The translations under genes were made by a program, and so were the position numbers. Of a DNA stretch of 64,000 bases, positions 2,063 to 13,191 are shown piece by piece. The notes beneath the pieces are model-generated. The model had not been told where the DNA came from. It searched no databases and saw only the letters and a program-made list of their open reading frames with translations. Position 1 is the stretch's first letter; each line of letters begins with the position of its first letter. The stretch comes from Sphingobacteriales bacterium (lineage in GTDB: Bacteria; Bacteroidota; Bacteroidia; Chitinophagales; Chitinophagaceae), in assembly GCA_016200915.1 (NCBI GenBank), contig JACQDV010000002.1, positions 186,001 to 250,000 on the forward strand, read 5' to 3'.

Positions 2063-3079
2063 ATGAATAATCAACTCCCTCCTCCTCCCGCACAGATGAT
2101 GCAAATGATCACCGGCTTCTGGACATCCTGCTGTATATATACGGCAGCTAAACTCAATATTGCCGATTATTTGAAAGATGGTCCGCAAACTGCCAACCAG
2201 TTGGCCGAATCCACACATAGTCATGCCCCTTCCCTGCATCGGGTATTAAGGGCTTTATCAAGTGTTGGTGTATTTAAAGAAAATAATCAGCAGCAGTATG
2301 AGCTTACTCCGCTTGGCAACACGTTGCAGGCTGATGTGCCCGGTTCCATGAAGGCAATGGCCATTGCACAATTAGGCGATCATTTTAATGCATGGGGCAA
2401 TTTGGTTTACAGTGTAAAGACCGGCAAAATTTCTTTTGATAACATCGAGGGAATGTCTGTATGGAAATATTATGAAACACACCCGGACGAAGGAGTGAAT
2501 TTTATGAAAGCAATGTCGGGTCTTACAGGAGCAGTTATTATGAATGTTTTACCTGAATATGATTTCACAGCGTTTAAAACGATCGTTGATGTGGGTGGTG
2601 GTAATGGTGCTTTGCTGATGGCTGTATTAGATAAAGCACCCAATGCAAAAGGAATTGTGTTTGATGAAGAATATGTTGTTGCAGAAACAAAAAAAATATT
2701 AGCACAAAAAGGATATAACAATCGCTGTGAAATTGCAGCAGGTAGCTTTTTTGATTTTATTCCGGCAAATGCTGATGCTTACCTGATGAAAATGGTATTG
2801 CACGACTGGAATGATGAACAATGTTTACAGATATTAAAGAACTGTAACAAAGCCATGAAACCAGGAAGTAAACTGCTGGTGCTTGACTCTGTTATTCCCG
2901 AAGGTAATGAACCGCATCCCGGAAAATTTATGGACATCAATATGCTGGCAATGACAGGTGGCATGGAAAGAACGGAAAAAGAATTTGCCAATCTCTTTGC
3001 AAAAGCAGAATTAAAACTTTCCAGGGTGATACCTACACATACCCCTCTCTTCAGCATCGTTGAAGCGATAAAAGAATAA
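2063..3079 (+). CDS. Class I SAM-dependent O-methyltransferase (plant-type OMT family 2)
   Basis: A 338-residue methyltransferase using S-adenosylmethionine. An N-terminal winged-helix dimerisation domain (residues about 5-90, NIADYLKDGPQTANQLAE) precedes a Rossmann domain with SAM motif VDVGGGNGALLMAVL. The LHDWNDEQC segment carries the histidine that serves as catalytic base in this family (acetylserotonin/hydroxyindole or polyketide O-methyltransferases). The start is placed at MNNQLPPPP because an in-frame ATG at 2009 would lie inside the palindromic operator region and adds an unrelated leader. The small-molecule substrate cannot be read from sequence. It lies directly downstream of a Crp-type regulator and its candidate operator, and 35 bases before a lipoprotein gene, so the two may be co-transcribed. 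Confidence 0.88.
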   Translation: MNNQLPPPPAQMMQMITGFWTSCCIYTAAKLNIADYLKDGPQTANQLAESTHSHAPSLHRVLRALSSVGVFKENNQQQYELTPLGNTLQADVPGSMKAMAIAQLGDHFNAWGNLVYSVKTGKISFDNIEGMSVWKYYETHPDEGVNFMKAMSGLTGAVIMNVLPEYDFTAFKTIVDVGGGNGALLMAVLDKAPNAKGIVFDEEYVVAETKKILAQKGYNNRCEIAAGSFFDFIPANADAYLMKMVLHDWNDEQCLQILKNCNKAMKPGSKLLVLDSVIPEGNEPHPGKFMDINMLAMTGGMERTEKEFANLFAKAELKLSRVIPTHTPLFSIVEAIKE

Positions 3080-3114
3080 TCAATCCCATCTATTAACTTA
3101 ATAAACAAAAATCA

Positions 3115-3831
3115 ATGAAACAGATCTCAGCACTTCTGTCAGCCGCTATGCTCGTAACTTTTTTTGCCTGCAATAACAGTGACCCTGTCAAGGAACAAAC
3201 CAAAACAACAGCAGATACCACCGCTACTACAAAACCAGCAGAGCCTCCGGCCTTTCAGCCTTATACTATCGTTACTGTTCACCATAAAGTAAAAGACTTT
3301 GACAAATGGTTATCGGTTTACCAGGCAGATGATTCAGCAAGAAAAGCAAACGGGCTAACTGAAATTGGTATAGGAAGAGGTTTGGATAACAACAATGAGA
3401 TCACCGTGGCATTTAAAGCGGATGATATTCAAAAAGCAAAAGATTTTACAAAGTCACCCGGTCTGAAAACAGCAATGCAGAAAGCTGGTGTTACCGGTCC
3501 GCCAACTATATCTTACCTCACTGTTATTCGTGATGATAACAGCAACATTGAACAAAAAGAAAGATTAATGGTGGCGCACCATGTAAAAGATTTTGATGCC
3601 TGGTTAAAAGTATATGACAGCGAAGGAAAAGCAACAAGAGCTGCCAATGGTCTTATCGATCGTGGGCTTGCAAGAGGCGTTGATGATCCCAATACAGTGT
3701 ATGTGCTGTTTGCTGTTACGGATATTGGCAAAGCAAAAGCAAGGGCCAACTCACCGGAATTGAAAAAGCTGATGACAGATGCGGGAGTTGATGGACCACC
3801 CACTATTAATTTTTATAAGCTGACTAAATAA
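3115..3831 (+). CDS. Lipoprotein with two ABM-like (dimeric alpha-beta barrel) repeats
   Basis: A 238-residue protein with a lipoprotein signal (lipobox FFAC, Cys at residue 19) and a Thr/Ala-rich linker. Two repeats follow: one from about residue 50 (IVTVHHKVKDFDKWLSVY) and one from about 145 (LMVAHHVKDFDAWLKVY). Each ends in the same pattern, AGVTGPPTISY and AGVDGPPTINFY. The HH-VKDFD-WL-VY pattern resembles antibiotic-biosynthesis-monooxygenase-like ferredoxin folds, in which two repeats would make one internal dimer. The function is unknown. A related single-domain protein is encoded at 6695-6979. Transcription ends at the hairpin at 3849. Confidence 0.75.
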   Translation: MKQISALLSAAMLVTFFACNNSDPVKEQTKTTADTTATTKPAEPPAFQPYTIVTVHHKVKDFDKWLSVYQADDSARKANGLTEIGIGRGLDNNNEITVAFKADDIQKAKDFTKSPGLKTAMQKAGVTGPPTISYLTVIRDDNSNIEQKERLMVAHHVKDFDAWLKVYDSEGKATRAANGLIDRGLARGVDDPNTVYVLFAVTDIGKAKARANSPELKKLMTDAGVDGPPTINFYKLTK

Positions 3832-3848
3832 TTTGATTCAGTATTTAT

Positions 3849-3896
3849 AAAATGAGCCACCATGCTTACAGCAGCAGTGGCTCATTTTATTTTTTG
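3849..3896. terminator. Bidirectional intrinsic terminator
   Basis: A 12-bp stem (AAAATGAGCCAC at 3849-3860 pairing with 3877-3888) has a 16-nt loop and is followed by a T-rich run to 3896, with an A-rich flank on the other side. It lies between the converging lipoprotein gene and the SnoaL-like gene, so it can serve both. Confidence 0.85.
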
Positions 3897-3926
3897 TTTA
3901 CTTCCTTAATTAGTTTTGAATTTATA

Positions 3927-4343
3927 TTATGACCAGAACTCATCCCATGCAGCAAGATCAAAGAAGTATTCGCTGCCACTAATAACCTGCCCGGCTTTCA
4001 ATTCAAAAACGATGCAGCAATCCACTGCTAACTTCTTACCGTTACGTTCACCGGTATTATGATGTATGCCAACAGCAACACTGCCATCATCACTTACAGT
4101 AACAGTCTTCAAAACTGCTTTAAAAGTTCCATTTGTTTCACCACCATATCTTCCAAACTGTGTAAATACCCCTTCTTTTCCTTTACGATTGCCGGCAACA
4201 GGACTTTTACCGGGAGTATGCCAGGAAGCATTGTTATGAAAAAGTTCGTTAAGGGTGTTGATATCGGCAGCATTGAAAGCTGCATAACCACGGCGTACCA
4301 GTTCTGCATTTTTTTCTGCAATACTCATAATAGCTGTTTCCAT
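3927..4343 (-). CDS. SnoaL-like / NTF2-superfamily protein
   Basis: A 138-residue protein beginning METAIMSIAEKNAELVRRGYAAFN. It shows the SnoaL-like pattern: an N-terminal helix AELVRRGYAAFNAADINTL, then LFHNNASWHTPGKSP, and a cone-shaped beta sheet ending in GSEYFFDLAAWDEFW. These proteins are small isomerases, cyclases or ligand binders; the exact reaction cannot be deduced. An internal ATG at 4328 (MSIAEKN) is an equally good start. It lies just downstream of the Crp-type regulator at 4433-5017 with a palindromic site between them, mirroring the regulator-methyltransferase pair at 1.4-3.1 kb. Confidence 0.82.
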   Translation of the reverse strand: METAIMSIAEKNAELVRRGYAAFNAADINTLNELFHNNASWHTPGKSPVAGNRKGKEGVFTQFGRYGGETNGTFKAVLKTVTVSDDGSVAVGIHHNTGERNGKKLAVDCCIVFELKAGQVISGSEYFFDLAAWDEFWS

Positions 4344-4411
4344 TTTTTACTATTTAAAGTGTAAGTAATTAATTGACGGTATAAAAATGGATAACAAAAA
4401 CCGGAAAAATT

Positions 4412-5275: not shown

Positions 5276-5800
5276 ATGAGAATCATTACTGTTATTGCCG
5301 CTATTTTATTTTTATCTGCCTGCAACACCAAAAAAGATAAAAGACATTTACTCACCGGTATGTACAAATTAGTAATTGCCGAGAACATGGATAGTGCTGG
5401 TGTATGGCGGCAGGACCCGTGGTCAAAAGGAGGCACTGGTTATATTGTATATGATGGACTTGGACATATGGCCGTGCATATTACCCGTGCAGGATATAAA
5501 GATTACCAATGGCTGAACAGAACGGATGCGTTGAGTGTTGAAAAAATAAATGCGCATATTGATAGTATGTCTGTTGATGAATTGAAAGCGGCCGTTAAAG
5601 AATTTACCGGCAGTTATGCTTATGCCGCTAATTATACCATGGAAGATACAGCGGATGTGGTAGTGCATCATCGCCTCACTGCTTCTACTCCCGCAGAGTG
5701 GGGAACGATAGCTCCAAGAGCATTTAGTTTTAGTGGAGATACCGTTATACTTCGTGTGCTGGATGGTAACCGGAGATTGAAATGGTTGAAGATGGAATAG
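5276..5800 (+). CDS. Lipocalin-like lipoprotein
   Basis: A 174-residue protein with a lipoprotein signal (MRIITVIAAILFLSAC, Cys at 16). The mature part has the beta-barrel pattern of the lipocalin-like domain seen in fungal and Bacteroidota secreted proteins (LLTGMYKLV at the first strand, GTGYIVYDGLGHMAVHITR, TADVVVHHRLTASTPAEW). The ligand is unknown. The last codons (5783-5803) belong to a 21-bp stretch found again at 6614-6634, after an 810-bp block that holds a broken acetyltransferase-like gene. A decayed copy of an internal part of this gene is visible near 7099-7148. The region therefore looks rearranged. Confidence 0.8.
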   Translation: MRIITVIAAILFLSACNTKKDKRHLLTGMYKLVIAENMDSAGVWRQDPWSKGGTGYIVYDGLGHMAVHITRAGYKDYQWLNRTDALSVEKINAHIDSMSVDELKAAVKEFTGSYAYAANYTMEDTADVVVHHRLTASTPAEWGTIAPRAFSFSGDTVILRVLDGNRRLKWLKME

Positions 5801-5803
5801 ATG
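5783..5803 (+). repeat. 21-bp direct repeat, left copy
   Basis: It is identical over 21 bases to 6614-6634. The left copy covers the last codons and stop of the lipocalin-like gene. The right copy precedes an intrinsic terminator. The block between carries the decayed GNAT-like gene and its small partner. Confidence 0.85.
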
Positions 5804-5863
5804 GTGCAAACAACTATAGAAGATAGCTGCTAATACGAAGAAAAAAACCGTGTAAATTAGACT

Positions 5864-6360
5864 ATGCGAAAACAAGCTGGGTTTGTAATTGACAAGATTA
5901 CTGAAAGCATTGAAGAAGTATCAACGGGAAAATCTTTTGAAACAGAAATTATCCTGGCATCTGTTGATGAGATAAGAAAAGTGCATAAGAAAGACGGATG
6001 GTTATTTAACTGGAAAAGAGAATTTACTTAGCCCGGGAGACAATTATTTAAACTGGTTATAAAAGGTGACAAAACAATTCAGGGTCTTATAAGCCTTGAA
6101 CCTGTTACAGACCAGCTTTATGTTGAAATGCACCTGATTGAAAATGCCCCGCAAAATTTAGGAGCAAATAAAAAATTTGCAGGTGCAGCGGCCAACCTTG
6201 TGGCTTTTGCCTGTAAAATGAGTTTGATTTGGGCTTTGAAGGTTTTGTAGCTTTTACCGCTAAAACTGACTTGATAGATCATTATACAGAAACATTAGGA
6301 GCTCAATCTGTTTACACCCCTGAAAGAATGGCAATCTTTACACCGGCTGCAAAAATTTAG
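5864..6360 (+). pseudogene. GNAT-like acetyltransferase, broken by a stop and a frameshift
   Basis: Reading from ATG 5864 gives MRKQAGFVIDKITESIEEVS and so on for 55 codons to an in-frame TAG at 6029-6031. The same frame then continues (PGRQLFKLVIKGDKT, GLISLEPVTDQLYVEMHLIE, NKKFAGAAANLVAFACKMS) to about 6222. There one T appears missing from a TTTT run, and the next frame finishes the protein (FDLGFEGFVAFTAKTDLIDH, LGAQSVYTPERMAIFTPAA) to a stop at 6358-6360. The strand pattern and the GFEGFVAFTAKT-YxxxLGA stretch resemble a GNAT fold. It is probably inactive, although an assembly error could explain the single-base shift. A small basic partner gene follows at once. Confidence 0.75.
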
Positions 6361-6387
6361 TAAATTCGTACTACAAAAATTACTTCG

Positions 6388-6561
6388 GTGGCTGATAAAA
6401 AGAAATATTACAAACTGGATGATATTGGGATTGTGGGCAAGCAGGAAAAAAAGAGTCCCAGTTCACAGGCCTACCATAAAAAAAAGACTGGCGACGTATT
6501 CCGTAAAGCAAGAACTGCATCACTAACTTCTTCACGGGTTCATGTTAAGAAGGCTTCTTAA
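6388..6561 (+). CDS. Small basic protein, partner of the broken GNAT-like gene
   Basis: A 57-residue frame with a GTG start reads VADKKKYYKLDDIGIVGKQE, then KKSPSSQAYHKKKTGDVFRK and ends RVHVKKAS. It is rich in Lys/Arg and Ser, has no membrane segment, and is probably largely disordered. It begins 27 bases after the stop of the acetyltransferase-like pseudogene. The pairing of an acetyltransferase with a short basic protein suggests a module, perhaps of toxin-antitoxin kind, but no function is known to me. Confidence 0.6.
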   Translation: MADKKKYYKLDDIGIVGKQEKKSPSSQAYHKKKTGDVFRKARTASLTSSRVHVKKAS

Positions 6562-6613
6562 TTATTTTCTGCATTGCTATCATCCTATTCATTCCAATGT
6601 TTGAGAAGGCATG

Positions 6614-6634
6614 TGGTTGAAGATGGAATAGATG
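6614..6634 (+). repeat. 21-bp direct repeat, right copy
   Basis: Second copy of the 5783-5803 sequence, immediately followed by the terminator at 6647. If the block between was inserted, this copy marks the original end of the lipocalin-like gene. Confidence 0.85.
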
Positions 6635-6646
6635 ATTTATAGAAAT

Positions 6647-6673
6647 AAAAAAGCCGGGTATACCGGCTTTTTT
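6647..6673. terminator. Intrinsic terminator, both strands
   Basis: The arms AAAAAAGCCGG and CCGGCTTTTTT enclose a 5-nt loop and are followed by TATTTTTT. It lies between the converging plus-strand block and the gene at 6695-6979. Confidence 0.88.
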
Positions 6674-6694
6674 ATTTTTTAAACTTAACCAATC

Positions 6695-6979
6695 TTATAC
6701 TTCAGCAGGAACTTCTACCGGCATGGAAACGGTGATAGGATCCAGTACCGTATGTTTTTCTTTAGCGATCTTTTCCATTACTTCCGGGTTACTCATTACA
6801 GCCTGCATTCCTTCCAGATCAAAAACTTCGGCAACTAAAACAATGGCATTAGGATCGTTTGTGTCCTGGAAGGTTTGGAAACCGGAGGCGAATTTTGAGA
6901 ACAGCTCAACACGGTCCTGGTGACCATTTAGCCATGTATTGATGTTTCCTACTTTGTGACGAATTACAACCGTTGGCAT
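6695..6979 (-). CDS. Small ABM-like domain protein
   Basis: A 94-residue cytoplasmic protein, MPTVVIRHKVGNINTWLNGH, with the pattern of a dimeric alpha-beta-barrel domain: an opening strand VVIRHKV, a W-L helix, the strand AIVLVAEVFDLEGMQAVM and a helix NPEVMEKIAKEKHTV. It resembles one repeat of the lipoprotein at 3115-3831 (HHKVKDFDKWL versus RHKVGNINTWL). Function is unknown. Confidence 0.7.
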   Translation of the reverse strand: MPTVVIRHKVGNINTWLNGHQDRVELFSKFASGFQTFQDTNDPNAIVLVAEVFDLEGMQAVMSNPEVMEKIAKEKHTVLDPITVSMPVEVPAEV

Positions 6980-7175
6980 CTTTTTAAAATTTAAACGTTA
7001 CGCTTACTCTAAACAGTTTTCAGCTTCCCTGTTGGTTTCATTGCATAGGACGATCAGTGAGAGTGTAAGAAAGGTAAGCTTTTTAAGTTACATGCTACGG
7101 ATTAGTAATGCATCACTGCTTCTACTCAATCCGAGAGAGGAACAGGATGTTGATGTGAGTGCAGATGAAATGTAG

Positions 7176-7222
7176 TTCACGCAAAGACGCTAAGTAATTA
7201 AGGCGCAGAGAAAACCTTTTAA
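7176..7222. repeat. CACGCAAAG repeat, half element
   Basis: TTCACGCAAAGACGC followed by TAAGTAATTAAGGCGCAGAG matches one arm of the repeats at 5157, 12649 and 13118. The facing arm is missing. Confidence 0.7.
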
Positions 7223-7259
7223 TGGATCATTTTTCAGTAGTGTATCATTTTGAAAAATT

Positions 7260-7340
7260 GAACCACGGAGACACAACAGAACACAGAGTGGCACAGGAAT
7301 TTCTCTGTGAAAACTTTGTGCTTCTCTGTCTCTGTGGTTC
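7260..7340. repeat. CCACGGAGACACA-type palindromic repeat
   Basis: GAACCACGGAGACACA at the left end faces CTGTCTCTGTGGTTC at the right end. Internal segments AACACAGAGTGGCACAG and TCTGTGAAAACTTTGTGC also face each other. It is a single copy of a second interspersed repeat family. Confidence 0.7.
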
Positions 7341-7388
7341 AGAAATAATCAAAGCAGAGCCGTACTAAATTTCAAAGTGAGACACTAT

Positions 7389-8234
7389 CTATTTTTCGGC
7401 TGATATAATTATAGCTGCATAATTCATGATCAACCTTCCGTCAACAAGCATGCTGTTGCAATCTTCTATCAACGCTTGTTTTATTTTATTGATCGTTACA
7501 TCATCCGCTTTTTTTAACAGGCTTATCGTTGTCTCCGACATTTCAGTTCTGTTTAACCAGTAATTTTCCGGCGTTTCAAAATCTACTTTGCCTGAAATTG
7601 TTTCTTCTTTTACATTTTTAAAACCAACCTTTTCAAATAATTCATTTACCAAACCGGACTTTACACACCGAAACATTCCCGGCGCATCGGTTGGTTGTTT
7701 TGGTATTTCAATATGTTTTGATAAGGCTTTTGTCACCGTAGTTGACCAATCATTTTTTTCCGGTGCAGCCCAAACGCTGATAGCTGCTTTACCACCAATT
7801 TTACAAACACGAAACATTTCATTTGCTGCCAATTGCATATCAGGGAAAAACATAAAACCCATCCGGCAGCTTATCTTATCAAAAAAATCGTTTTGGAAAG
7901 GAAGATCAGAACCATCGGCGGTTTTAAATTCAATGTTAGTGATATTAAGTTCGTGAGCATAGTCACGGGCAACGTTTAGCATTTCTTCAGACAGGTCGGT
8001 TGCATATACCCGCCCATTTTTTGCAATGGCTGCAATGGTGAACGCAGGCTCACCGGTGCCGGAAGCCAAATCCAGTACAACATCGTTAGGCTGAATACTC
8101 AGCGCCTTTATGATTGCTTCACCTGTTGGCTTTAAGAAATTCATGGTGAAGTCATTCCATTTCTTCCACGCATTGGAAACGTTATTCCATGCTTCTTTCT
8201 GCAAATCACTGATTTCTTGTAAGTCTTCTTTCAT
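7389..8234 (-). CDS. Class I SAM-dependent methyltransferase (UbiE/COQ5-like)
   Basis: A 281-residue protein. Motif I is VVLDLASGTGEPAFTIA (about residues 53-69), followed by VYATDLSEEMLNVARDYA, NIEFKTADGSDLPF and DKISCRMGFMFFPDMQ, the order of the UbiE-type methyltransferase domain. The helical C-terminal part (ENYWLNRTEMSETTISLLK) may bind substrate. The target cannot be named: the ubiquinone/menaquinone type is only the fold relative. It stands alone, oriented away from the plus-strand pair at 8317. Confidence 0.85.
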   Translation of the reverse strand: MKEDLQEISDLQKEAWNNVSNAWKKWNDFTMNFLKPTGEAIIKALSIQPNDVVLDLASGTGEPAFTIAAIAKNGRVYATDLSEEMLNVARDYAHELNITNIEFKTADGSDLPFQNDFFDKISCRMGFMFFPDMQLAANEMFRVCKIGGKAAISVWAAPEKNDWSTTVTKALSKHIEIPKQPTDAPGMFRCVKSGLVNELFEKVGFKNVKEETISGKVDFETPENYWLNRTEMSETTISLLKKADDVTINKIKQALIEDCNSMLVDGRLIMNYAAIIISAEK

Positions 8235-8316
8235 ACCACGAATCTACTAATCTGCCTAACTGCGGCAAGCTGGTTAATTGTTATTTTTTGTTACATTAGA
8301 TTAAAACTTACAAGCA

Positions 8317-8667
8317 ATGGAATGGGACGAATACCAAGCGTCGAGAAAATTTGCAGAAGCAAAGATGCTTGCATTAATGGATCATGAAAACAAACCTCAT
8401 GCCGCAGTTGCATTTCCAGCAGATAGTTACCTTGAGTACAACAAGAATGGAAGAAAATTCTTTTATTTTGGAACAAATATATTTAGAGGCTTTTTTGAAG
8501 ATAATTTACCTAAAGCTATTAGAATGTTCCCGTTAAATTTTAGTAATGGAAATGCAATGAGTGTTATTCATGCTGTAAATAAGACAAGACCTGTTTTTAT
8601 TAGAGACAAAGAAGTAGTAAGAATTTTGCAGAACGAATGCTTGCAGTTATACATGAAGATAGAATAA
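8317..8667 (+). CDS. Hypothetical protein, first gene of an overlapping pair
   Basis: A 116-residue protein, MEWDEYQASRKFAEAKMLAL, with an alpha+beta pattern (HAAVAFPADSYLEY, RKFFYFGTNIFRGFF) and no signal peptide or membrane segment. I do not recognise the family. Its end overlaps the next gene by 31 bases in another frame. The two lie just upstream of the HTH-nucleotidyltransferase pair, so a small accessory or toxin-antitoxin role is possible but not shown. Confidence 0.6.
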   Translation: MEWDEYQASRKFAEAKMLALMDHENKPHAAVAFPADSYLEYNKNGRKFFYFGTNIFRGFFEDNLPKAIRMFPLNFSNGNAMSVIHAVNKTRPVFIRDKEVVRILQNECLQLYMKIE

Positions 8668-9086
8668 GTAGCCAAAATGATAATATAATAAGATTGGATC
8701 TATTCAGAAAATTAGATAAACAAAAACATCATAAAAGAAAATATGAATTTACTGGTGGGATACTTCATGCCTTAAAGTATTTTAGTTTACAAGGCAAGCC
8801 GCTTTCAACGGGAAACGAAACCAATGATATATTGCACCCATTAAAAATTGTTGAAATCACTATTGATTCATTTTTTATTGCTCAAGATTCATATTACGAA
8901 AGTGCAACTAAATATATGTGCTTTCACAGCTTAGACGCTGATAAAGATTTAAAATTTGTATTTTATTTTGAACCTGTATCAGAGGTTTATTTTCTTACTA
9001 CAATACATAAACAATCAAAAAAGAATACACAAAATGACAAAAGGATAGCTAGGAAAAAAGGGTGGGCAAATATTCGTCCATTATAA
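8637..9086 (+). CDS. Hypothetical protein, second gene of an overlapping pair
   Basis: A 149-residue basic protein. The central part reads EFTGGILHALKYFSLQG, then HPLKIVEITIDSFFIAQDSY and DLKFVFYFEPVSEVYFLTTI, ending in a Lys/Arg-rich tail. The HALK helix followed by paired strands and a final FLTT strand loosely recalls BECR/barnase-type nuclease toxins, but no catalytic set can be confirmed. The start at 8637 overlaps the upstream gene by 31 bases; no better start lies downstream without losing conserved-looking sequence. Confidence 0.55.
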   Translation: MLAVIHEDRISSQNDNIIRLDLFRKLDKQKHHKRKYEFTGGILHALKYFSLQGKPLSTGNETNDILHPLKIVEITIDSFFIAQDSYYESATKYMCFHSLDADKDLKFVFYFEPVSEVYFLTTIHKQSKKNTQNDKRIARKKGWANIRPL

Positions 9087-9197
9087 TTAAACCCTCGAGT
9101 TACTTTTTTATTTCGTGGCTGCGGATAAATTTCCGTTTTCCCCTCAATCTGGTCGGCTTCTATAATATTAAAATCCTTAAGGTTTGGTTTTCAAATC

Positions 9198-9230
9198 AAT
9201 ACGTAATTCGCAAATTGCGAATTACGTATT
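9198..9230. repeat. Perfect 33-nt palindrome (16+1+16), CAAATTG class
   Basis: Left arm 9198-9213, centre A 9214, right arm 9215-9230. The core TTCGCAAATTGCGAA shares TCGCAAATTGCGA with 22517-22537. It ends where a TATCTTTG promoter element starts, 11 bases before the HTH gene. It may therefore act as that gene's operator, or be a copy of the ORF6N-associated palindrome family. Confidence 0.85.
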
Positions 9231-9237
9231 ATCTTTG
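9230..9237 (+). promoter_or_regulatory. TAnnTTTG promoter element for the HTH-nucleotidyltransferase pair
   Basis: TATCTTTG fits the Bacteroidota -7 element and ends 4 bases before the ATG at 9242, implying a leaderless or nearly leaderless message. The 33-nt palindrome abuts it on the upstream side. Confidence 0.5.
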
Positions 9238-9241
9238 GATT

Positions 9242-9757
9242 ATGAGAAAACATAGTGGAATGAGGCCTCAAGATATTGTAGTGCTTCTTAAAATAATATC
9301 AAAAGGAGAGCAGGCTTGGCAAAATAAAGATATTGCCAACGAACTTTTTATTAGTCAGTCTGAAATCTCAGATTCGCTAAATAGAAGTTCTTTAGGTGGG
9401 TTAATTGAAAGTGAAAGAAAGAAAAAAGTATTTCGTAATTCATTACTAGAATTTATTGAACATGGATTACACTATGTTTTTCCTGCTTTGCCTGGAAGTA
9501 TGACCAATGGAGTTTATACTGCACATTCTCATCCTTTCATGCAGCAACATTTTTCCAGTGAGTTAAATTATGTATGGTCTGATCCTCGTGGTGATTTTAG
9601 GGGCTTGAGTATTGAACCATTATATAAAGAACAAGTTAAAGCAGTTAAAAATGACGATACATTATATTTAATGTTAGCACTTATTGATGTAATTAGGGTA
9701 GGCCGTGTCAGAGAAATGAAAATAGCTGTTCAAGAACTTAAAAGATTAATTCTATGA
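9242..9757 (+). CDS. Winged-HTH protein, antitoxin-like
   Basis: A 171-residue protein starting MRKHSGMRPQDIVVLLKIIS. Residues about 5-70 form a helix-turn-helix (NKDIANELFISQSEISDSLN). The rest (HGLHYVFPALPGSMTNGVYT, HSHPFMQ, VWSDPRGDFRGLSIEPLY) resembles the C-terminal part of proteins paired with nucleotidyltransferases. A frame extends upstream to 9062, but it crosses the palindrome and promoter, so 9242 is preferred. The gene overlaps the nucleotidyltransferase gene by 4 bases (ATGA), typical of antitoxin-toxin coupling as in AbiE-like systems. It probably represses its own promoter at the adjacent palindrome. Confidence 0.72.
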   Translation: MRKHSGMRPQDIVVLLKIISKGEQAWQNKDIANELFISQSEISDSLNRSSLGGLIESERKKKVFRNSLLEFIEHGLHYVFPALPGSMTNGVYTAHSHPFMQQHFSSELNYVWSDPRGDFRGLSIEPLYKEQVKAVKNDDTLYLMLALIDVIRVGRVREMKIAVQELKRLIL

Positions 9758-10458
9758 ACCATCATATAAATATTACCCGAGTCAAAGCTGTCTATAATGC
9801 TTTAGATGAATTAAAAGACAAGGTAGTCTTTGTCGGTGGTGCGACGGTTTCATTATATGCTGATAGAATGGCTGCTGAAATTCGAGAAACTAGCGACGTT
9901 GACATACTAATAGAATTATATAAGCGAAAAGATTATATCGAATTGGAAGAACAATTAAGAAAAAAAGGATTTGAAAGCGATTCTTCAGCAAAATTTGTAG
10001 GACGATTTAAAATACAAGGAATTGTCGTAGATGTAATGCCTACAATTGAAGAAGTGTTAGGCTTCTCCAATCGCTGGTATATTGATGGGTATTCAAATGC
10101 GATTGATTATACAATAGACGAGCAATGCACAGTAAAAATTTTTACTGGCCCGTATTTTATTGCATCAAAAATTGAAGCATTCAAAGGGAGAGGTAAACGA
10201 GGAGATGGTGAGCTAGATGGACGCTTTAGTCAGGATTTTGAAGACATAGTATTTGTTTTGGAAAACAGAAGAGCAATTTGGGAAGAAATGAAAAGTGCAA
10301 AACCTGAATTAAGAGATTACTTATTAAATGAATTTAAATCTTTGTATAAAAATCCATACATAGAAGAATGGATTAGTTCACATTCAAGTTCATATTCACC
10401 TCCAAGTGTTTATTTTATTATGGAAAACATAGAAGAATTTATAGGTTTCAATTCTTAG
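9754..10458 (+). CDS. Nucleotidyltransferase-fold protein, toxin-like (AbiEii/MenT-type relative)
   Basis: A 234-residue protein. VVFVGGATVSLYADRM (Gly28-Gly29) and ETSDVDILIEL (Asp48, Asp50) form the nucleotidyltransferase signature. IVVDVMPT (Asp93) supplies the likely third acidic residue. Enzymes of this fold transfer nucleotides, and in the AbiE and MenT systems they act as toxins on tRNA. The C-terminal half is helical. It is translationally coupled to the HTH gene before it. An antiphage or toxin-antitoxin role is inferred from the pair, not shown. Its 3' end overlaps the opposing glycosyltransferase-like pseudogene by 3 bases. Confidence 0.75.
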   Translation: MNHHINITRVKAVYNALDELKDKVVFVGGATVSLYADRMAAEIRETSDVDILIELYKRKDYIELEEQLRKKGFESDSSAKFVGRFKIQGIVVDVMPTIEEVLGFSNRWYIDGYSNAIDYTIDEQCTVKIFTGPYFIASKIEAFKGRGKRGDGELDGRFSQDFEDIVFVLENRRAIWEEMKSAKPELRDYLLNEFKSLYKNPYIEEWISSHSSSYSPPSVYFIMENIEEFIGFNS

Positions 10459-11177
10459 GGTGTATATAAAACTGACCTCCTCACATAGGGACCGAAATCT
10501 ATATATTTCTTTTGATTGTCACTGAATCCATTATGCTGCACCACAACCATAGGATTACACACGAAAAATTTCCCTTTATGTGCTACTGCTCTATCAAAAT
10601 CTTTGTCCTCAGGAACAGATAAAATGACATCATAGAATTTCTCATTTACTATATATAAAGTATTTCCAGAAAAATCATCAACGCTATTATCTTCCGTTTT
10701 TTTTACCCAAATTATCCCGCCCAGATAGATATCAAAGTCATTTGGTTTGTTACTTAGAAAATATTCAAAAGAATTTTTAGATGTAAAATGAATATCATCT
10801 TCTGCAATAAGGACTTCAGGGAGTTTCTATCTCCGCAGGGTGTCCTCCGGTGCATTGTGAGTTGGGCAGGTACCCTGAGGCATCAGGGAACAACAGTACA
10901 AATTTTCAACTATAGTATTTCAAACGCCGCAGGGTTCTTCGCCAACGCACATAACTGCAAAGAAACCCTGCGGAGATGGAAGGACTTCAGGGAGTTTTTC
11001 ATTTTTTGCAAACATTATTATCTGCTTATGGGCTTTAGATATTCCACGAGATGGCAATTCTGCATCAATTATACCATCCCACATTTGATAATCACTTATT
11101 TGTTGTTCTTGTAATTCTTTCGTCAAAATCTCAAGTCTATCAATTCGATGTCTTAGATGTATAATATTTAATTTCAT
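10455..11177 (-). pseudogene. Glycosyltransferase-25-like gene split by a small element
   Basis: The first part reads MKLNIIHLRHRIDRLEILTK and continues to FAKNEKLPEVL near 10980. The frame then enters an insert and stops after GEEPCGV. Beyond the insert the same frame resumes with KLPEVLIAEDDIHFTSKNSF and runs through FDIYLGGIIWVKKTEDN and CNPMVVVQHNGFSDNQK to a stop at 10455. The RxDR start, the EDD metal-binding motif and the late VVQHNG segment match glycosyltransferase family 25-like proteins. The insert plus duplicated flank is 171 bp, a multiple of three, but contains a stop. Without it a protein of about 183 residues would result. Confidence 0.8.
10809..10997. mobile_element. 153-bp MITE-like insert with 18-bp flanking direct repeat
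   Basis: AAGGACTTCAGGGAGTTT occurs at 10809-10826 and again at 10980-10997. The 153 bp between begin with TATCTCCGCAGGGT and end with ACCCTGCGGAGATGG, so ATCTCCGCAGGGT/ACCCTGCGGAGAT form perfect 13-bp terminal inverted repeats. A further CCGCAGGGT lies inside at about 10929. The element has no gene of its own. It interrupts the glycosyltransferase-like gene. The long flanking duplication is unusual for a transposase of common type. Confidence 0.75.
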
Positions 11178-11306
11178 TGATTAAGCTAACTTCAGTTACG
11201 GAAAACAGTTTAGTTTATTCATCAAGCTAAGTAAAATTACAGAACCCTGAACGGAGCGTCGCAATTGTCGCCCAATAATAGCAATGTCGCTGGCTACATA
11301 ATTATC

Positions 11307-12575
11307 TCAATGATCATTCAATGGCAATCCTCTCTTCTGCCATTCAATCCAGTTCACATATTCAGGAGCCACACGGTGTTCTTCCATGGTAATACAATTA
11401 TCAACCGGGCAAACGAGTTTGCATAAATTACAACCCACACACTCTTCATCAATCACAGTATAAGTGTTGTAGGGTTTGCCATATTCTAATTTGATAGATT
11501 GATGAGAAGTATCTTCACAGGCGATATAACACAAACCGCAGTGAATACATTTATCCTGGTTTATCTTGGCAATATGATGATAGTTGATATCCAAATCTTC
11601 CCAATGCGTAACGGTGGGTACCGATTTACCAATGAAATCTTCCAGCGTTTTAAATCCTTTTTCATCCATCCAGTTATTCAACCCTTCAATCATATCTTCC
11701 ACAATACGGAAGCCATGTTTCATCGCGGCTGTACATACCTGCACATTGCTGGCGCCTAACAACATAAACTCCACCGCATCCCGCCAGGTACTGATACCAC
11801 CAATACCACTGATGGGAACTTTATTAGTTAGTTCATCCTGCGCAATGGTAGTGAGCATCTTTAAAGCGATCGGTTTTACTGCCGGGCCGCAATAACCACC
11901 AAACACACTCTTACCCGCCACATAAGGATTAGGAACAAGCGTATCCAGATCAACACCGGTTACCGATTGAATGGTATTGATCAGGCTCAATCCATGAGTA
12001 CCAGCTTTTACAACGGAACGGCCTGTTGGCACCACAGAATGCACATTCGGCGTGAGCTTTGTTATCACGGGGATAGTAGCTGCTTCCATCACCCATTCCA
12101 CCACCATGCAGGCAATCTCCGGGTCTTGTCCTACGGCAGCACCCATACCACGTTCGGTCATGCCATGCGGACAACCAAAGTTTAATTCAAAACCATGTGC
12201 ACCGGTGTCTTCACATTTTTTAATTAATTCATGCCAGCTCTTTTTATCATTATCGGCCATTAAGGAAACGATCATTGCCCTGTCGGGGAACAACTTCACA
12301 CACTCTGCAATTTCTTTCAGGTTAATATCCAACGGACGGTCGCTGATAAGCTCAATGTTGTTAAAACCCATCACTCTTTGTCCGCCATAATCCACCGCAG
12401 AATATCTTGAAGAAACATTCTTCACCTGTGAGCCGAGTGTTTTCCAAACCACTCCACCCCAGCCGGCTTCAAAAGCACGGAGCACATTGTATTTTTTATC
12501 AGTAGGCGGCGCACTCGCTAACCAGAATGGATTAGGAGATTTGATGCCGAGGAAGGTTGATTCAATGTTTGTCAT
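11307..12575 (-). CDS. preA: Dihydropyrimidine dehydrogenase, catalytic/ferredoxin subunit PreA
   Basis: A 422-residue protein, close to the length of E. coli PreA. The N-terminal two thirds is a dihydroorotate-dehydrogenase-like FMN barrel (FELNFGCPHGMTERGMGAAVG, PISGIGGISTWRDAVEFM). The C-terminus carries two 4Fe-4S clusters (CIHCGLCYIACEDTSHQ and CVGCNLCKLVCPVDNC). With PreT it reduces uracil and thymine to the dihydro forms using NADH, the first step of reductive pyrimidine breakdown. It is the last gene of the minus-strand cluster, separated from preT by a GxxExxY gene and repeats. Confidence 0.95.
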   Translation of the reverse strand: MTNIESTFLGIKSPNPFWLASAPPTDKKYNVLRAFEAGWGGVVWKTLGSQVKNVSSRYSAVDYGGQRVMGFNNIELISDRPLDINLKEIAECVKLFPDRAMIVSLMADNDKKSWHELIKKCEDTGAHGFELNFGCPHGMTERGMGAAVGQDPEIACMVVEWVMEAATIPVITKLTPNVHSVVPTGRSVVKAGTHGLSLINTIQSVTGVDLDTLVPNPYVAGKSVFGGYCGPAVKPIALKMLTTIAQDELTNKVPISGIGGISTWRDAVEFMLLGASNVQVCTAAMKHGFRIVEDMIEGLNNWMDEKGFKTLEDFIGKSVPTVTHWEDLDINYHHIAKINQDKCIHCGLCYIACEDTSHQSIKLEYGKPYNTYTVIDEECVGCNLCKLVCPVDNCITMEEHRVAPEYVNWIEWQKRGLPLNDH

Positions 12576-12583
12576 AATTTTGT

Positions 12584-12719
12584 TCCACGCAAAGGCGCTA
12601 AGGAGCCAAGGCGCAATTTTTATAATTTGTTTACAATACGATTTTTTTCACGCAAAGAGGCAAAGGAGCAGAGGCGCAATTTTTTTCCTTGCGCCTTAAT
12701 TACTTAGCGTCTTTGCGAG
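12584..12719. repeat. Two CACGCAAAGG-type repeats in tandem
   Basis: A first half element (12584-12617, CCACGCAAAGGCGCTAAGGA) is followed by a full palindromic element (12649-12719) with arms CACGCAAAGAGGCAAAGGAG and TTAGCGTCTTTGCG. They fill the spacer between the GxxExxY gene and preA. Confidence 0.85.
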
Positions 12720-12725
12720 AAATCA

Positions 12726-13106
12726 TTACAAGTTATTTACAATACGATGAATGCCATCTTTAATTAGTTCAACATTAAAATTTATCAACAGCCCCAGTTT
12801 CATTTCAGTAAGTTTTAAATACGTCAGTAACTGTTTGTAATGGACTGGCGCCAGTAACTCAATTGATTTTAATTCCAATATCACCTTGTTATCAATAATC
12901 ACATCAGCTCTGAAGCCAGCATCCAATTTTATTTCTTCATGTATCAATGGGATAGCTTGCTGCCTGGTAAATGGTATCCCGTTCTTGCTCCACTCATAAC
13001 AAAATATCTCCTCGTAAACAGATTCAAATAAACCTGGCCCATATTGCTTATGAATTTTAAAACATAAGTCAACGACAAGTTTAGATATTTCGTTTTCCGT
13101 GTACAT
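12726..13106 (-). CDS. GxxExxY protein
   Basis: A 126-residue protein with the family's signature in GPGLFESVYEEIFCYEW and a second conserved block VILELKSIELLAPVHYKQL. The ELK segment resembles the core of PD-(D/E)xK nucleases, to which these proteins are thought to be related, but no activity is established. It sits between preT and preA, bracketed on both sides by CACGCAAAGG repeats, so it looks like a passenger that entered the operon with them rather than a pathway enzyme. Confidence 0.88.
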   Translation of the reverse strand: MYTENEISKLVVDLCFKIHKQYGPGLFESVYEEIFCYEWSKNGIPFTRQQAIPLIHEEIKLDAGFRADVIIDNKVILELKSIELLAPVHYKQLLTYLKLTEMKLGLLINFNVELIKDGIHRIVNNL

Positions 13107-13117
13107 CTGTTTAATCT

Positions 13118-13191
13118 TTCACGCAAAGGCGGTAAGGAGCAGAGGCGCAATTTCCCTTAGCGTCTTATTTACTTTGCCCCTTTGCGTGGAA
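13118..13191. repeat. CACGCAAAGG-type repeat overlapping the preT 3' end
   Basis: A full palindromic element with arms TTCACGCAAAGGCGGTAAGG and TTTGCCCCTTTGCGTGGAA. Bases from 13165 on encode the last residues of PreT (FHAKGQSK) and its stop codon, so the repeat has replaced the native end of the gene. Confidence 0.85.

What the first reader, a model, noticed from the sequence alone, without database searches (positions are those of the whole stretch)
5783..6634. Acetyltransferase-like gene and small partner between 21-bp direct repeats
An 810-bp block carrying a decayed GNAT-like gene and a 57-residue basic protein lies between two identical 21-bp copies of the end of the lipocalin-like gene, with the terminator after the second copy. 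This is the pattern left by insertion at a gene end, as with attachment sites, although no recombinase gene is present. An alternative is a duplicated lipocalin-like gene mostly replaced by other DNA.
Basis: partly seen in the sequence, partly recalled or inferred. Interest (0 to 1): 0.55.

Follow-up and report, generated by a model that had tools for sequence, protein, structure and literature searches.

The report
Decayed mobile toxin-like gene pair
A broken copy of a widespread two-gene unit, an acetyltransferase resembling bacterial toxins plus a small basic partner, sits between two copies of the end of a neighbouring gene, and many of its relatives in other bacteria sit between such repeats too, which suggests that the unit moves about without carrying an enzyme for moving.

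Summary
In detail: an exact 21-bp direct repeat (5783-5803, 6614-6634) brackets 810 bp holding a broken GNAT gene and an open 57-residue basic ORF, after a lipocalin-like gene and before a terminator. It is not an isolated oddity. Of the 80 best of 527 relatives found, 78 GNAT genes are intact and 75 of those have a 41-71-residue ORF at their end; 27 of 72 testable units lie between direct repeats within 400 bp, against 7 of 336 control placements. A second, intact unit in the same genome sits at the 3' end of exbD between 200-bp repeats (94.5% identical). Some units lie in integron-like arrays with toxin-antitoxin genes; others stand alone beside murB, thiolase, rarA or exbD, with a duplicated gene end. 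The GNAT matches no Pfam or NCBIfam family convincingly; its predicted fold is GNAT. A relative is the C-terminal domain of a phage MuF protein followed by a small ORF. Best reading: a mobile GNAT toxin-antitoxin-like unit with its own promoter, inserted with long, variable target duplication, as described for restriction-modification systems; here the toxin is dead and the partner open. Toxicity and the inserting machinery are inferred, not shown.

The parts
5276..5800 (+). lipocalin-like lipoprotein gene, the target; its last codons form the first repeat copy
   Evidence: ORF; Lipocalin_5 E 1.8e-10; ortholog in G002 87% identical with other last codons
5783..5803 (+). left copy of the 21-bp direct repeat
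5804..6613 (+). inserted block between the repeats, 810 bp
5853..5860 (+). TAAATTAG, -7-box-like motif 11 nt before the GNAT start; TAnnTT begins 10-14 nt before the start in 56 of 77 relatives against 57 of 1512 control places
5864..6395 (+). broken GNAT-like acetyltransferase gene (toxin-like); TAG at 6029-6031, frame change near 6215-6229 and a probable one near 6350
6388..6561 (+). 57-residue small basic protein, GTG start inside the end of the GNAT gene; presumed antitoxin, open
6614..6634 (+). right copy of the 21-bp direct repeat
6647..6673 (.). bidirectional terminator hairpin, probably the original lipocalin terminator
   Evidence: sequence; arms (I2)

Best explanation
The block is a decayed member of a widespread, mobile two-gene unit. 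Gene 1 is a GNAT-fold acetyltransferase, most likely a toxin (by analogy, one that acetylates charged tRNA). Gene 2, overlapping or directly after it, is a small basic protein, most likely its antitoxin or immunity protein. The unit seems to carry its own promoter at a fixed distance from gene 1. It entered next to the lipocalin gene in an event that left the gene end in direct repeat on both sides: insertion with long, variable target duplication, as described for restriction-modification systems. For some relatives the two copies look like alleles from different strains, so I infer that the incoming DNA carried the unit plus a piece of the neighbouring gene end and joined at that homology. 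Here the toxin is now dead and the partner still open. Shown: the repeat, the family, the pair, the motif spacing, the enrichment of repeats, the predicted GNAT fold. Inferred: toxicity, neutralisation, promoter activity, enzyme and route of insertion.
For: Pair: 75 of 78 intact GNATs have a 41-71-residue ORF starting within -42 to +63 nt of the stop (median pI 9.9); the 3 of 13 plasmid records that I opened (Paenibacillus, Treponema, Streptococcus) also have a 59-70-residue ORF there. Repeats: 27 of 72 units vs 7 of 336 controls, Fisher p 9e-17; after clustering GNATs at 85% identity still 25 of 65. A second intact unit in the same genome lies between 200-bp repeats of the exbD end, and one in a viral contig between 193-bp repeats, 92%. 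Two alleles: the murB-end copies of L076 differ by 7 synonymous and 0 nonsynonymous codons of 19 compared, and at the 8 differing sites the orphan copy is closer to all three genus mates (orphan:functional 6:1, 4:2, 7:1), which have murB and no GNAT beside it; thiolase L058: 5 synonymous, 1 nonsynonymous, 1 indel. Toxin: model pLDDT 93, GNAT fold, VIA rows headed by TacT3, Z 13.0 (2.7 A, 142 residues) and 12.7; GNAT as C-terminus of a Phage_Mu_F protein of phage phiPaco followed by a 58-residue ORF overlapping by 4 nt; an array with HigB, YoeB and HepT neighbours and one with PIN. Patchy: 70 of 294 family genomes, own included, some with several copies.
Against: 45 of 72 units show no repeat; in 16 further family loci only 3 do, two of them weak and the third, L046, inside a dispersed repeat family. 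12 of the 27 repeat-flanked units have 3 or more copies of the repeat in the locus, so integron-type recombination may account for those. For L100, L102, L078 and L057 the copies differ by 3/2, 4/3, 3/7 and 1/1 synonymous/nonsynonymous codons, compatible with plain duplication and drift. In exbD the signal is mixed: of 10 differing sites, 4 match the functional copy in both relatives, 2 split (G001 functional, G002 orphan), 2 match the orphan in G002 alone, 1 the orphan in G001 alone, 1 neither. SpeG, not a toxin, heads Foldseek's list, and TacT3's lead over a Listeria GNAT not described as a toxin is under 1 Z, a tie. No partner scanned has a recognised antitoxin domain. No clean empty site for the window.
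Confidence: 0.62

Rival explanations
1. Integron-type gene cassette: the unit is captured and moved by an integron integrase through attC sites, and lone copies are cassettes inserted outside an array, their attC lost.
For: Several relatives lie in loci with 3 to 9 copies of a repeat spaced by small genes (L095, L096, L105, L109, L115, L126); in L096 and L095 neighbours are toxin-antitoxin genes. By eye the L096, L115 and L126 repeats begin with TAAC and end with CGTT around inverted segments; L115 has a recombinase whose best NCBIfam match is integron integrase, E 1.9e-59.
Against: A strict both-ends motif test was met by 1 of 27 units, and bottom-strand folds of the L095, L105, L109, L115 and L126 repeats are no better than shuffles (z -1.4 to 1.3; L096 -2.7). 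The window repeat has no fold, and several two-copy repeats are ends of ordinary genes. None of 117 family genomes has a hit over the integron-integrase cut-off, and the best hit in this genome lacks profile positions 181-239. The L115 hit is below cut-off too (201.6 of 265 bits).
Confidence: 0.2
2. Site-specific integration at gene ends by a tyrosine recombinase acting in trans (prophage or integrative element), the repeats being attL and attR.
For: Repeat at a gene 3' end next to a terminator; the last codons of the lipocalin differ from the G002 ortholog (WLKME against WVRVR), as if replaced; murB end apparently replaced by a foreign allele.
Against: No shared core seen among repeats; targets are different genes and both 5' and 3' ends; lengths 17 to 264 columns; no recombinase in the window block.
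Confidence: 0.12
3. Gene duplication: the lipocalin gene was duplicated and the middle replaced by other DNA.
For: Two copies of the gene end exist.
Against: Similarity ends sharply at 21 bp; the same kind of block sits at unrelated genes elsewhere.
Confidence: 0.02
4. The pair is not toxin-antitoxin but an enzyme with a small helper (for example protein or polyamine acetylation), carried along by chance.
For: SpeG acetyltransferases head the Foldseek list; no functional test exists; no convincing Pfam or NCBIfam family.
Against: MuF-fused homolog with a small ORF, toxin-antitoxin neighbours in two arrays, a dead GNAT with an open partner in the window, a solitary partner in G010 with no GNAT match, several GNAT toxins among the top VIA rows.
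Confidence: 0.22

Closest known systems
GNAT toxins of type II toxin-antitoxin systems (TacT, AtaT, KacT, GmvT)
   Same: GNAT fold of about 175 residues; small partner gene adjoining; patchy and in some genomes multi-copy; TacT3 heads the VIA list
   Different: the partner lies downstream, is short and basic, and has no antitoxin domain in Pfam, whereas the known GNAT toxins pair with DUF1778/RHH antitoxins (PMC9177977 and PMC9431474, abstracts in the search listing; that these lie upstream is recalled); 8 to 14% sequence identity in the toxin rows
Restriction-modification systems inserted with long target duplication (Nobusato 2000 and Furuta 2010, known to me through PMC3031569 and PMC3874152; passages of these two read)
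   Same: small selfish gene pair, no transposase, long and variable duplication of the order of 100 bp
   Different: the cargo is an acetyltransferase pair; in at least one case the two repeat copies look like different alleles
MuF polymorphic toxins of phages (PMC5576092, passages read)
   Same: a related GNAT is the C-terminal domain of a Phage_Mu_F protein followed by a small ORF in phage phiPaco
   Different: the window unit is free-standing; GNAT and acetyltransferase do not occur in the main text of that paper nor in the held part of PMC3482391 (term searches)
Integron gene cassettes
   Same: some relatives are small units between repeats of about 70-140 bp in arrays that hold toxin-antitoxin genes
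   Different: the window repeat is not attC-like

Membership tests
GNAT toxin of a type II toxin-antitoxin system | GNAT fold | tested here: met
   intact relative L048 modelled at pLDDT 93.3; 89 PDB chains at E <= 0.001, of which the 50 listed are acetyltransferases or related N-acyltransferases; VIA Z 13.0 with TacT3
GNAT toxin of a type II toxin-antitoxin system | adjacent small gene that could encode the antitoxin | tested here: met
   75 of 78 intact GNATs have a 41-71-residue ORF at their end; co-transcription and neutralisation not tested
GNAT toxin of a type II toxin-antitoxin system | RHH or DUF1778 antitoxin | tested here: not met
   22 partners, the window's included, scanned against Pfam at E <= 0.01: two weak hits, DUF7277 and IgaA, one member each, no RHH or DUF1778; four distant partners none; window partner none in NCBIfam or PADLOC. 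The other partners were not scanned
GNAT toxin of a type II toxin-antitoxin system | growth arrest by acetylating aminoacyl-tRNA, relieved by the partner | not testable with these tools
   needs expression and tRNA assays
Integron gene cassette | attC site next to the cassette | tested here: not met
   window repeat has no fold and by eye no attC ends; attC-like repeats in some relatives' arrays by eye only
Integron gene cassette | integron integrase in the genome | tested here: inconclusive
   no hit over cut-off in 117 family genomes; best own hit 98.5 bits, split, lacking positions 181-239
Insertion with long target duplication | direct repeats of the target, of variable length, on both sides | tested here: met
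   27 of 72 units vs 7 of 336 controls; 15 of the 27 with just two copies in the locus
Insertion with long target duplication | empty site with a single copy in a close relative | tested here: inconclusive
   murB present without the unit beside it in 3 of 4 other genomes of the genus of L076, no match in the fourth; exbD end single and no GNAT in the stretches of G001 and G002 fetched; different neighbouring DNA there, so no clean empty site; window site not clean either
Site-specific integrative element | recombinase gene within the element | tested here: not met
   only the GNAT remnant and the 57-residue ORF recognised in the 810 bp
MuF polymorphic toxin | Phage_Mu_F domain fused N-terminally | tested here: not met
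   window gene is free-standing; the domain is found in the phiPaco relative

The most novel reading that the evidence does not exclude
A recombinase-less toxin-antitoxin unit that spreads by itself among Bacteroidota and beyond: it travels with a copy of a host gene's end, joins that gene's ortholog in the recipient, replaces or shadows the gene end with the foreign allele, and is held in place by addiction until the toxin decays. It would be a general gene-end shuttle for tiny toxin units, linking integron-like arrays, lone genomic copies and phage MuF toxins.
Probability: 0.3. Interest if true: 0.8.

Novelty: new variant of a known kind. Interest (0 to 1): 0.6.

Why it matters
Long target duplication without a transposase was described for restriction-modification systems, and how it arises is, as far as I know, unsettled. 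This unit gives many natural examples with spans under 1.3 kb, two insertions in one genome, some with two distinguishable alleles, so the mechanism becomes testable. It also points to an unnamed GNAT family with hundreds of members, without a convincing Pfam or NCBIfam model, and a new kind of small partner, as candidate toxin and antitoxin.

Tried and rejected
Lipocalin duplication: rejected, similarity confined to 21 bp. Chance repeat: rejected. Integron cassette for the window copy: no attC-like structure. A strict both-ends attC pattern was met by 1 of 27 repeat-flanked units, and shuffle tests of the folded array repeats were mostly negative, so the integron reading of the arrays rests on copy number, neighbours, one recombinase and my eye. 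Family look-ups of the window pair in Pfam, NCBIfam, PADLOC and PHROGs gave nothing convincing. PDB sequence search with the 56-sequence profile: no match up to E 10. Empty-site attempts for L049 (flanks matched on different contigs in G015) and L046 (flank belongs to a dispersed repeat family) led nowhere. An exact 13-mer scan of 30 loci was replaced by blastn tests. In the first repeat scan L089 was an artefact of a locus edge, so at score 20 the count is 21 of 78 rather than 22 of 79, against 8 of 256 controls. Eight of 80 units were dropped from the final test: two with broken GNATs (L063, L086) and six with short flanks (L078, L083, L089, L092, L108, L117). The second structure job was not used.

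No paper describing this pair between repeats was seen in the listings; the library holds open-licence papers only. Furuta 2010 is not held; Nobusato 2000 was not looked up.

Full report
The observation. The 21-bp direct repeat is real and exact, at 5783-5803 and 6614-6634, with 810 bp between. It occurs nowhere else in the 4.5-Mb genome held with up to two mismatches. The first copy is the end of a lipocalin-like lipoprotein gene; in the joined empty site the terminator hairpin of 6647-6673 would begin 16 bases past the stop (sequence). The block holds a GNAT-like gene broken by a stop and at least one change of frame, and an open 57-residue ORF that begins within the end of the GNAT gene.

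The family. A search of 294 family genomes with the window GNAT found matches in 70, the own genome included, some with several copies and some with internal stops. The window small protein found one relative in 58 other genomes at E <= 0.001. Among the 80, 78 GNATs are intact, and 75 of these have a 41-71-residue ORF around the GNAT stop, median pI 9.9. The commoner partner pattern reads roughly DFxxxxxPLTxxExxAISxFIK; the window belongs to a second pattern, KKxYYxLDxIGxxGxQ. TAnnTT, the core of what I recall as the Bacteroidota -7 box, begins 10-14 nt before the start in 56 of 77 units against 57 of 1512 control places. The unit therefore seems to carry its own promoter; the window keeps the motif.

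The repeats. With 400-bp flanks, 27 of 72 testable units lie between direct repeats (blastn E <= 1e-3), against 7 of 336 placements of the same geometry elsewhere in the same loci (Fisher p 9e-17). Clustering the GNATs at 85% identity leaves 25 of 65; the p-value still takes units as independent. Spans run from 751 to 1290 bp. In 16 further family loci, without controls, 3 had repeats, two of them weak. Fifteen of the 27 have two copies of the repeat in the locus, twelve have three to nine. Some many-copy loci look like integron arrays: L096 holds Gp49-HTH, HigB-HTH, Phd/YefM-YoeB and nucleotidyltransferase-HepT pairs around the GNAT unit, L095 a DUF6364-PIN pair, and L115 a recombinase whose best NCBIfam match is integron integrase, below its cut-off. 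Fold tests did not confirm attC hairpins except weakly for L096. The two-copy loci include ends of ordinary genes: murB 3' end (L076), a thiolase 3' end (L058), rarA 5' end (L057), others in L100 and L102 (the gene names are my reading of the proteins). L078, with a span of 1349 bp, was compared but is not among the 27.

The same genome supplies an independent case. Its second unit (contig C62, GNAT and 62-residue partner both intact, GNAT 45% identical to the window query) sits at the 3' end of exbD (my naming), and a 200-column copy of that end, 94.5% identical, lies on the other side. In the stretches of G001 and G002 fetched, the exbD end is single, with other DNA and no GNAT beside it. 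A unit in a viral contig with a Mu-like transposase ORF (my reading) is also between repeats, 193 bp, 92%.

Where the second copy comes from. In L076 the two murB ends differ in seven of 19 codons, all synonymous, and the orphan copy is closer than the functional one to the three genus mates that have murB without a GNAT beside it. That fits an incoming DNA that brought unit and gene end together, the native end being displaced. L058 points the same way (5 synonymous, 1 nonsynonymous, 1 indel). L100, L102, L078 and L057 do not discriminate, and exbD is mixed. At the lipocalin the copies are identical and too short to tell, but the last codons differ from those of G002. The interval from the lipocalin to the dihydropyrimidine-dehydrogenase-like gene is variable: about 5.5 kb here, about 1.9 kb of other genes in G002. 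So no clean empty site for the window was found among the genomes searched.

What the pair does. The model of L048 (56 sequences) has pLDDT 93.3 and pTM 0.89. Foldseek gives 89 PDB chains at E <= 0.001, SpeG first, TM about 0.5 (50 rows seen). VIA-align, which only re-aligns Foldseek's list, puts TacT3 first (Z 13.0, 2.7 A over 142 residues), then TacT3-TacA3 (12.7), a Listeria GNAT (12.2) and AtaT2 (11.9); differences under 1 are ties. In phage phiPaco a relative (43.5% identity, query residues 44-169) forms the C-terminus of a Phage_Mu_F minor head protein, and a 58-residue ORF overlaps its end by 4 nt; two viral minor capsid proteins head the BFVD list. Of 191 MuF toxin genes in one survey, 89.4% are followed by a small ORF, taken as immunity (PMC5576092, passages). 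No partner scanned has an antitoxin domain in Pfam. In G010 a lone partner lies next to a type I methylase-like gene (my reading) with no GNAT match. Together this makes toxin plus antitoxin the most likely function, unproven.

Comparison. [quoted passage not shown] The present unit looks the same with a different cargo. Known GNAT toxins pair with DUF1778 or RHH antitoxins (abstracts); this one does not, so I do not file it as a TacT-type system, only as one that probably works like it. I rate it a new variant of a known kind.

Noticed in passing
G000:C62 (L176, reverse complement 3044-4353): Second, intact GNAT plus 62-residue partner in the same genome between 200-bp repeats of the exbD 3' end.
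   Followed up: yes
L178:2331-4078 (Fusobacterium phage phiPaco): The same GNAT domain at the C-terminus of a Phage_Mu_F minor head protein with a 58-residue ORF overlapping its end: a candidate MuF acetyltransferase toxin and immunity pair.
   Followed up: partly
L096:1-6326: Integron-like array with toxin-antitoxin pairs (HigB-HTH, Phd/YefM-YoeB, nucleotidyltransferase-HepT, Gp49-HTH) separated by attC-like repeats, in an uncultured bacterium.
   Followed up: partly
window 7237-7387, 12644-12731 and 13117-13191: Dispersed repeats with many further copies in this genome; the third stretch also matches once in G002.
   Followed up: no
window 5801-11310: Variable interval between the lipocalin and a dihydropyrimidine-dehydrogenase-like gene; G002 has about 1.9 kb of other genes there.
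   Followed up: partly
L011 (G010:C14), around 588824-588958: Solitary relative of the small partner next to, and divergent from, a type I methylase-like gene, with no GNAT match nearby; a possible orphan antitoxin.
   Followed up: partly
L128:4707-5880 (IMG/VR contig): GNAT unit inside a viral contig with a Mu-like transposase ORF, flanked by 193-bp direct repeats, 92% identical.
   Followed up: partly
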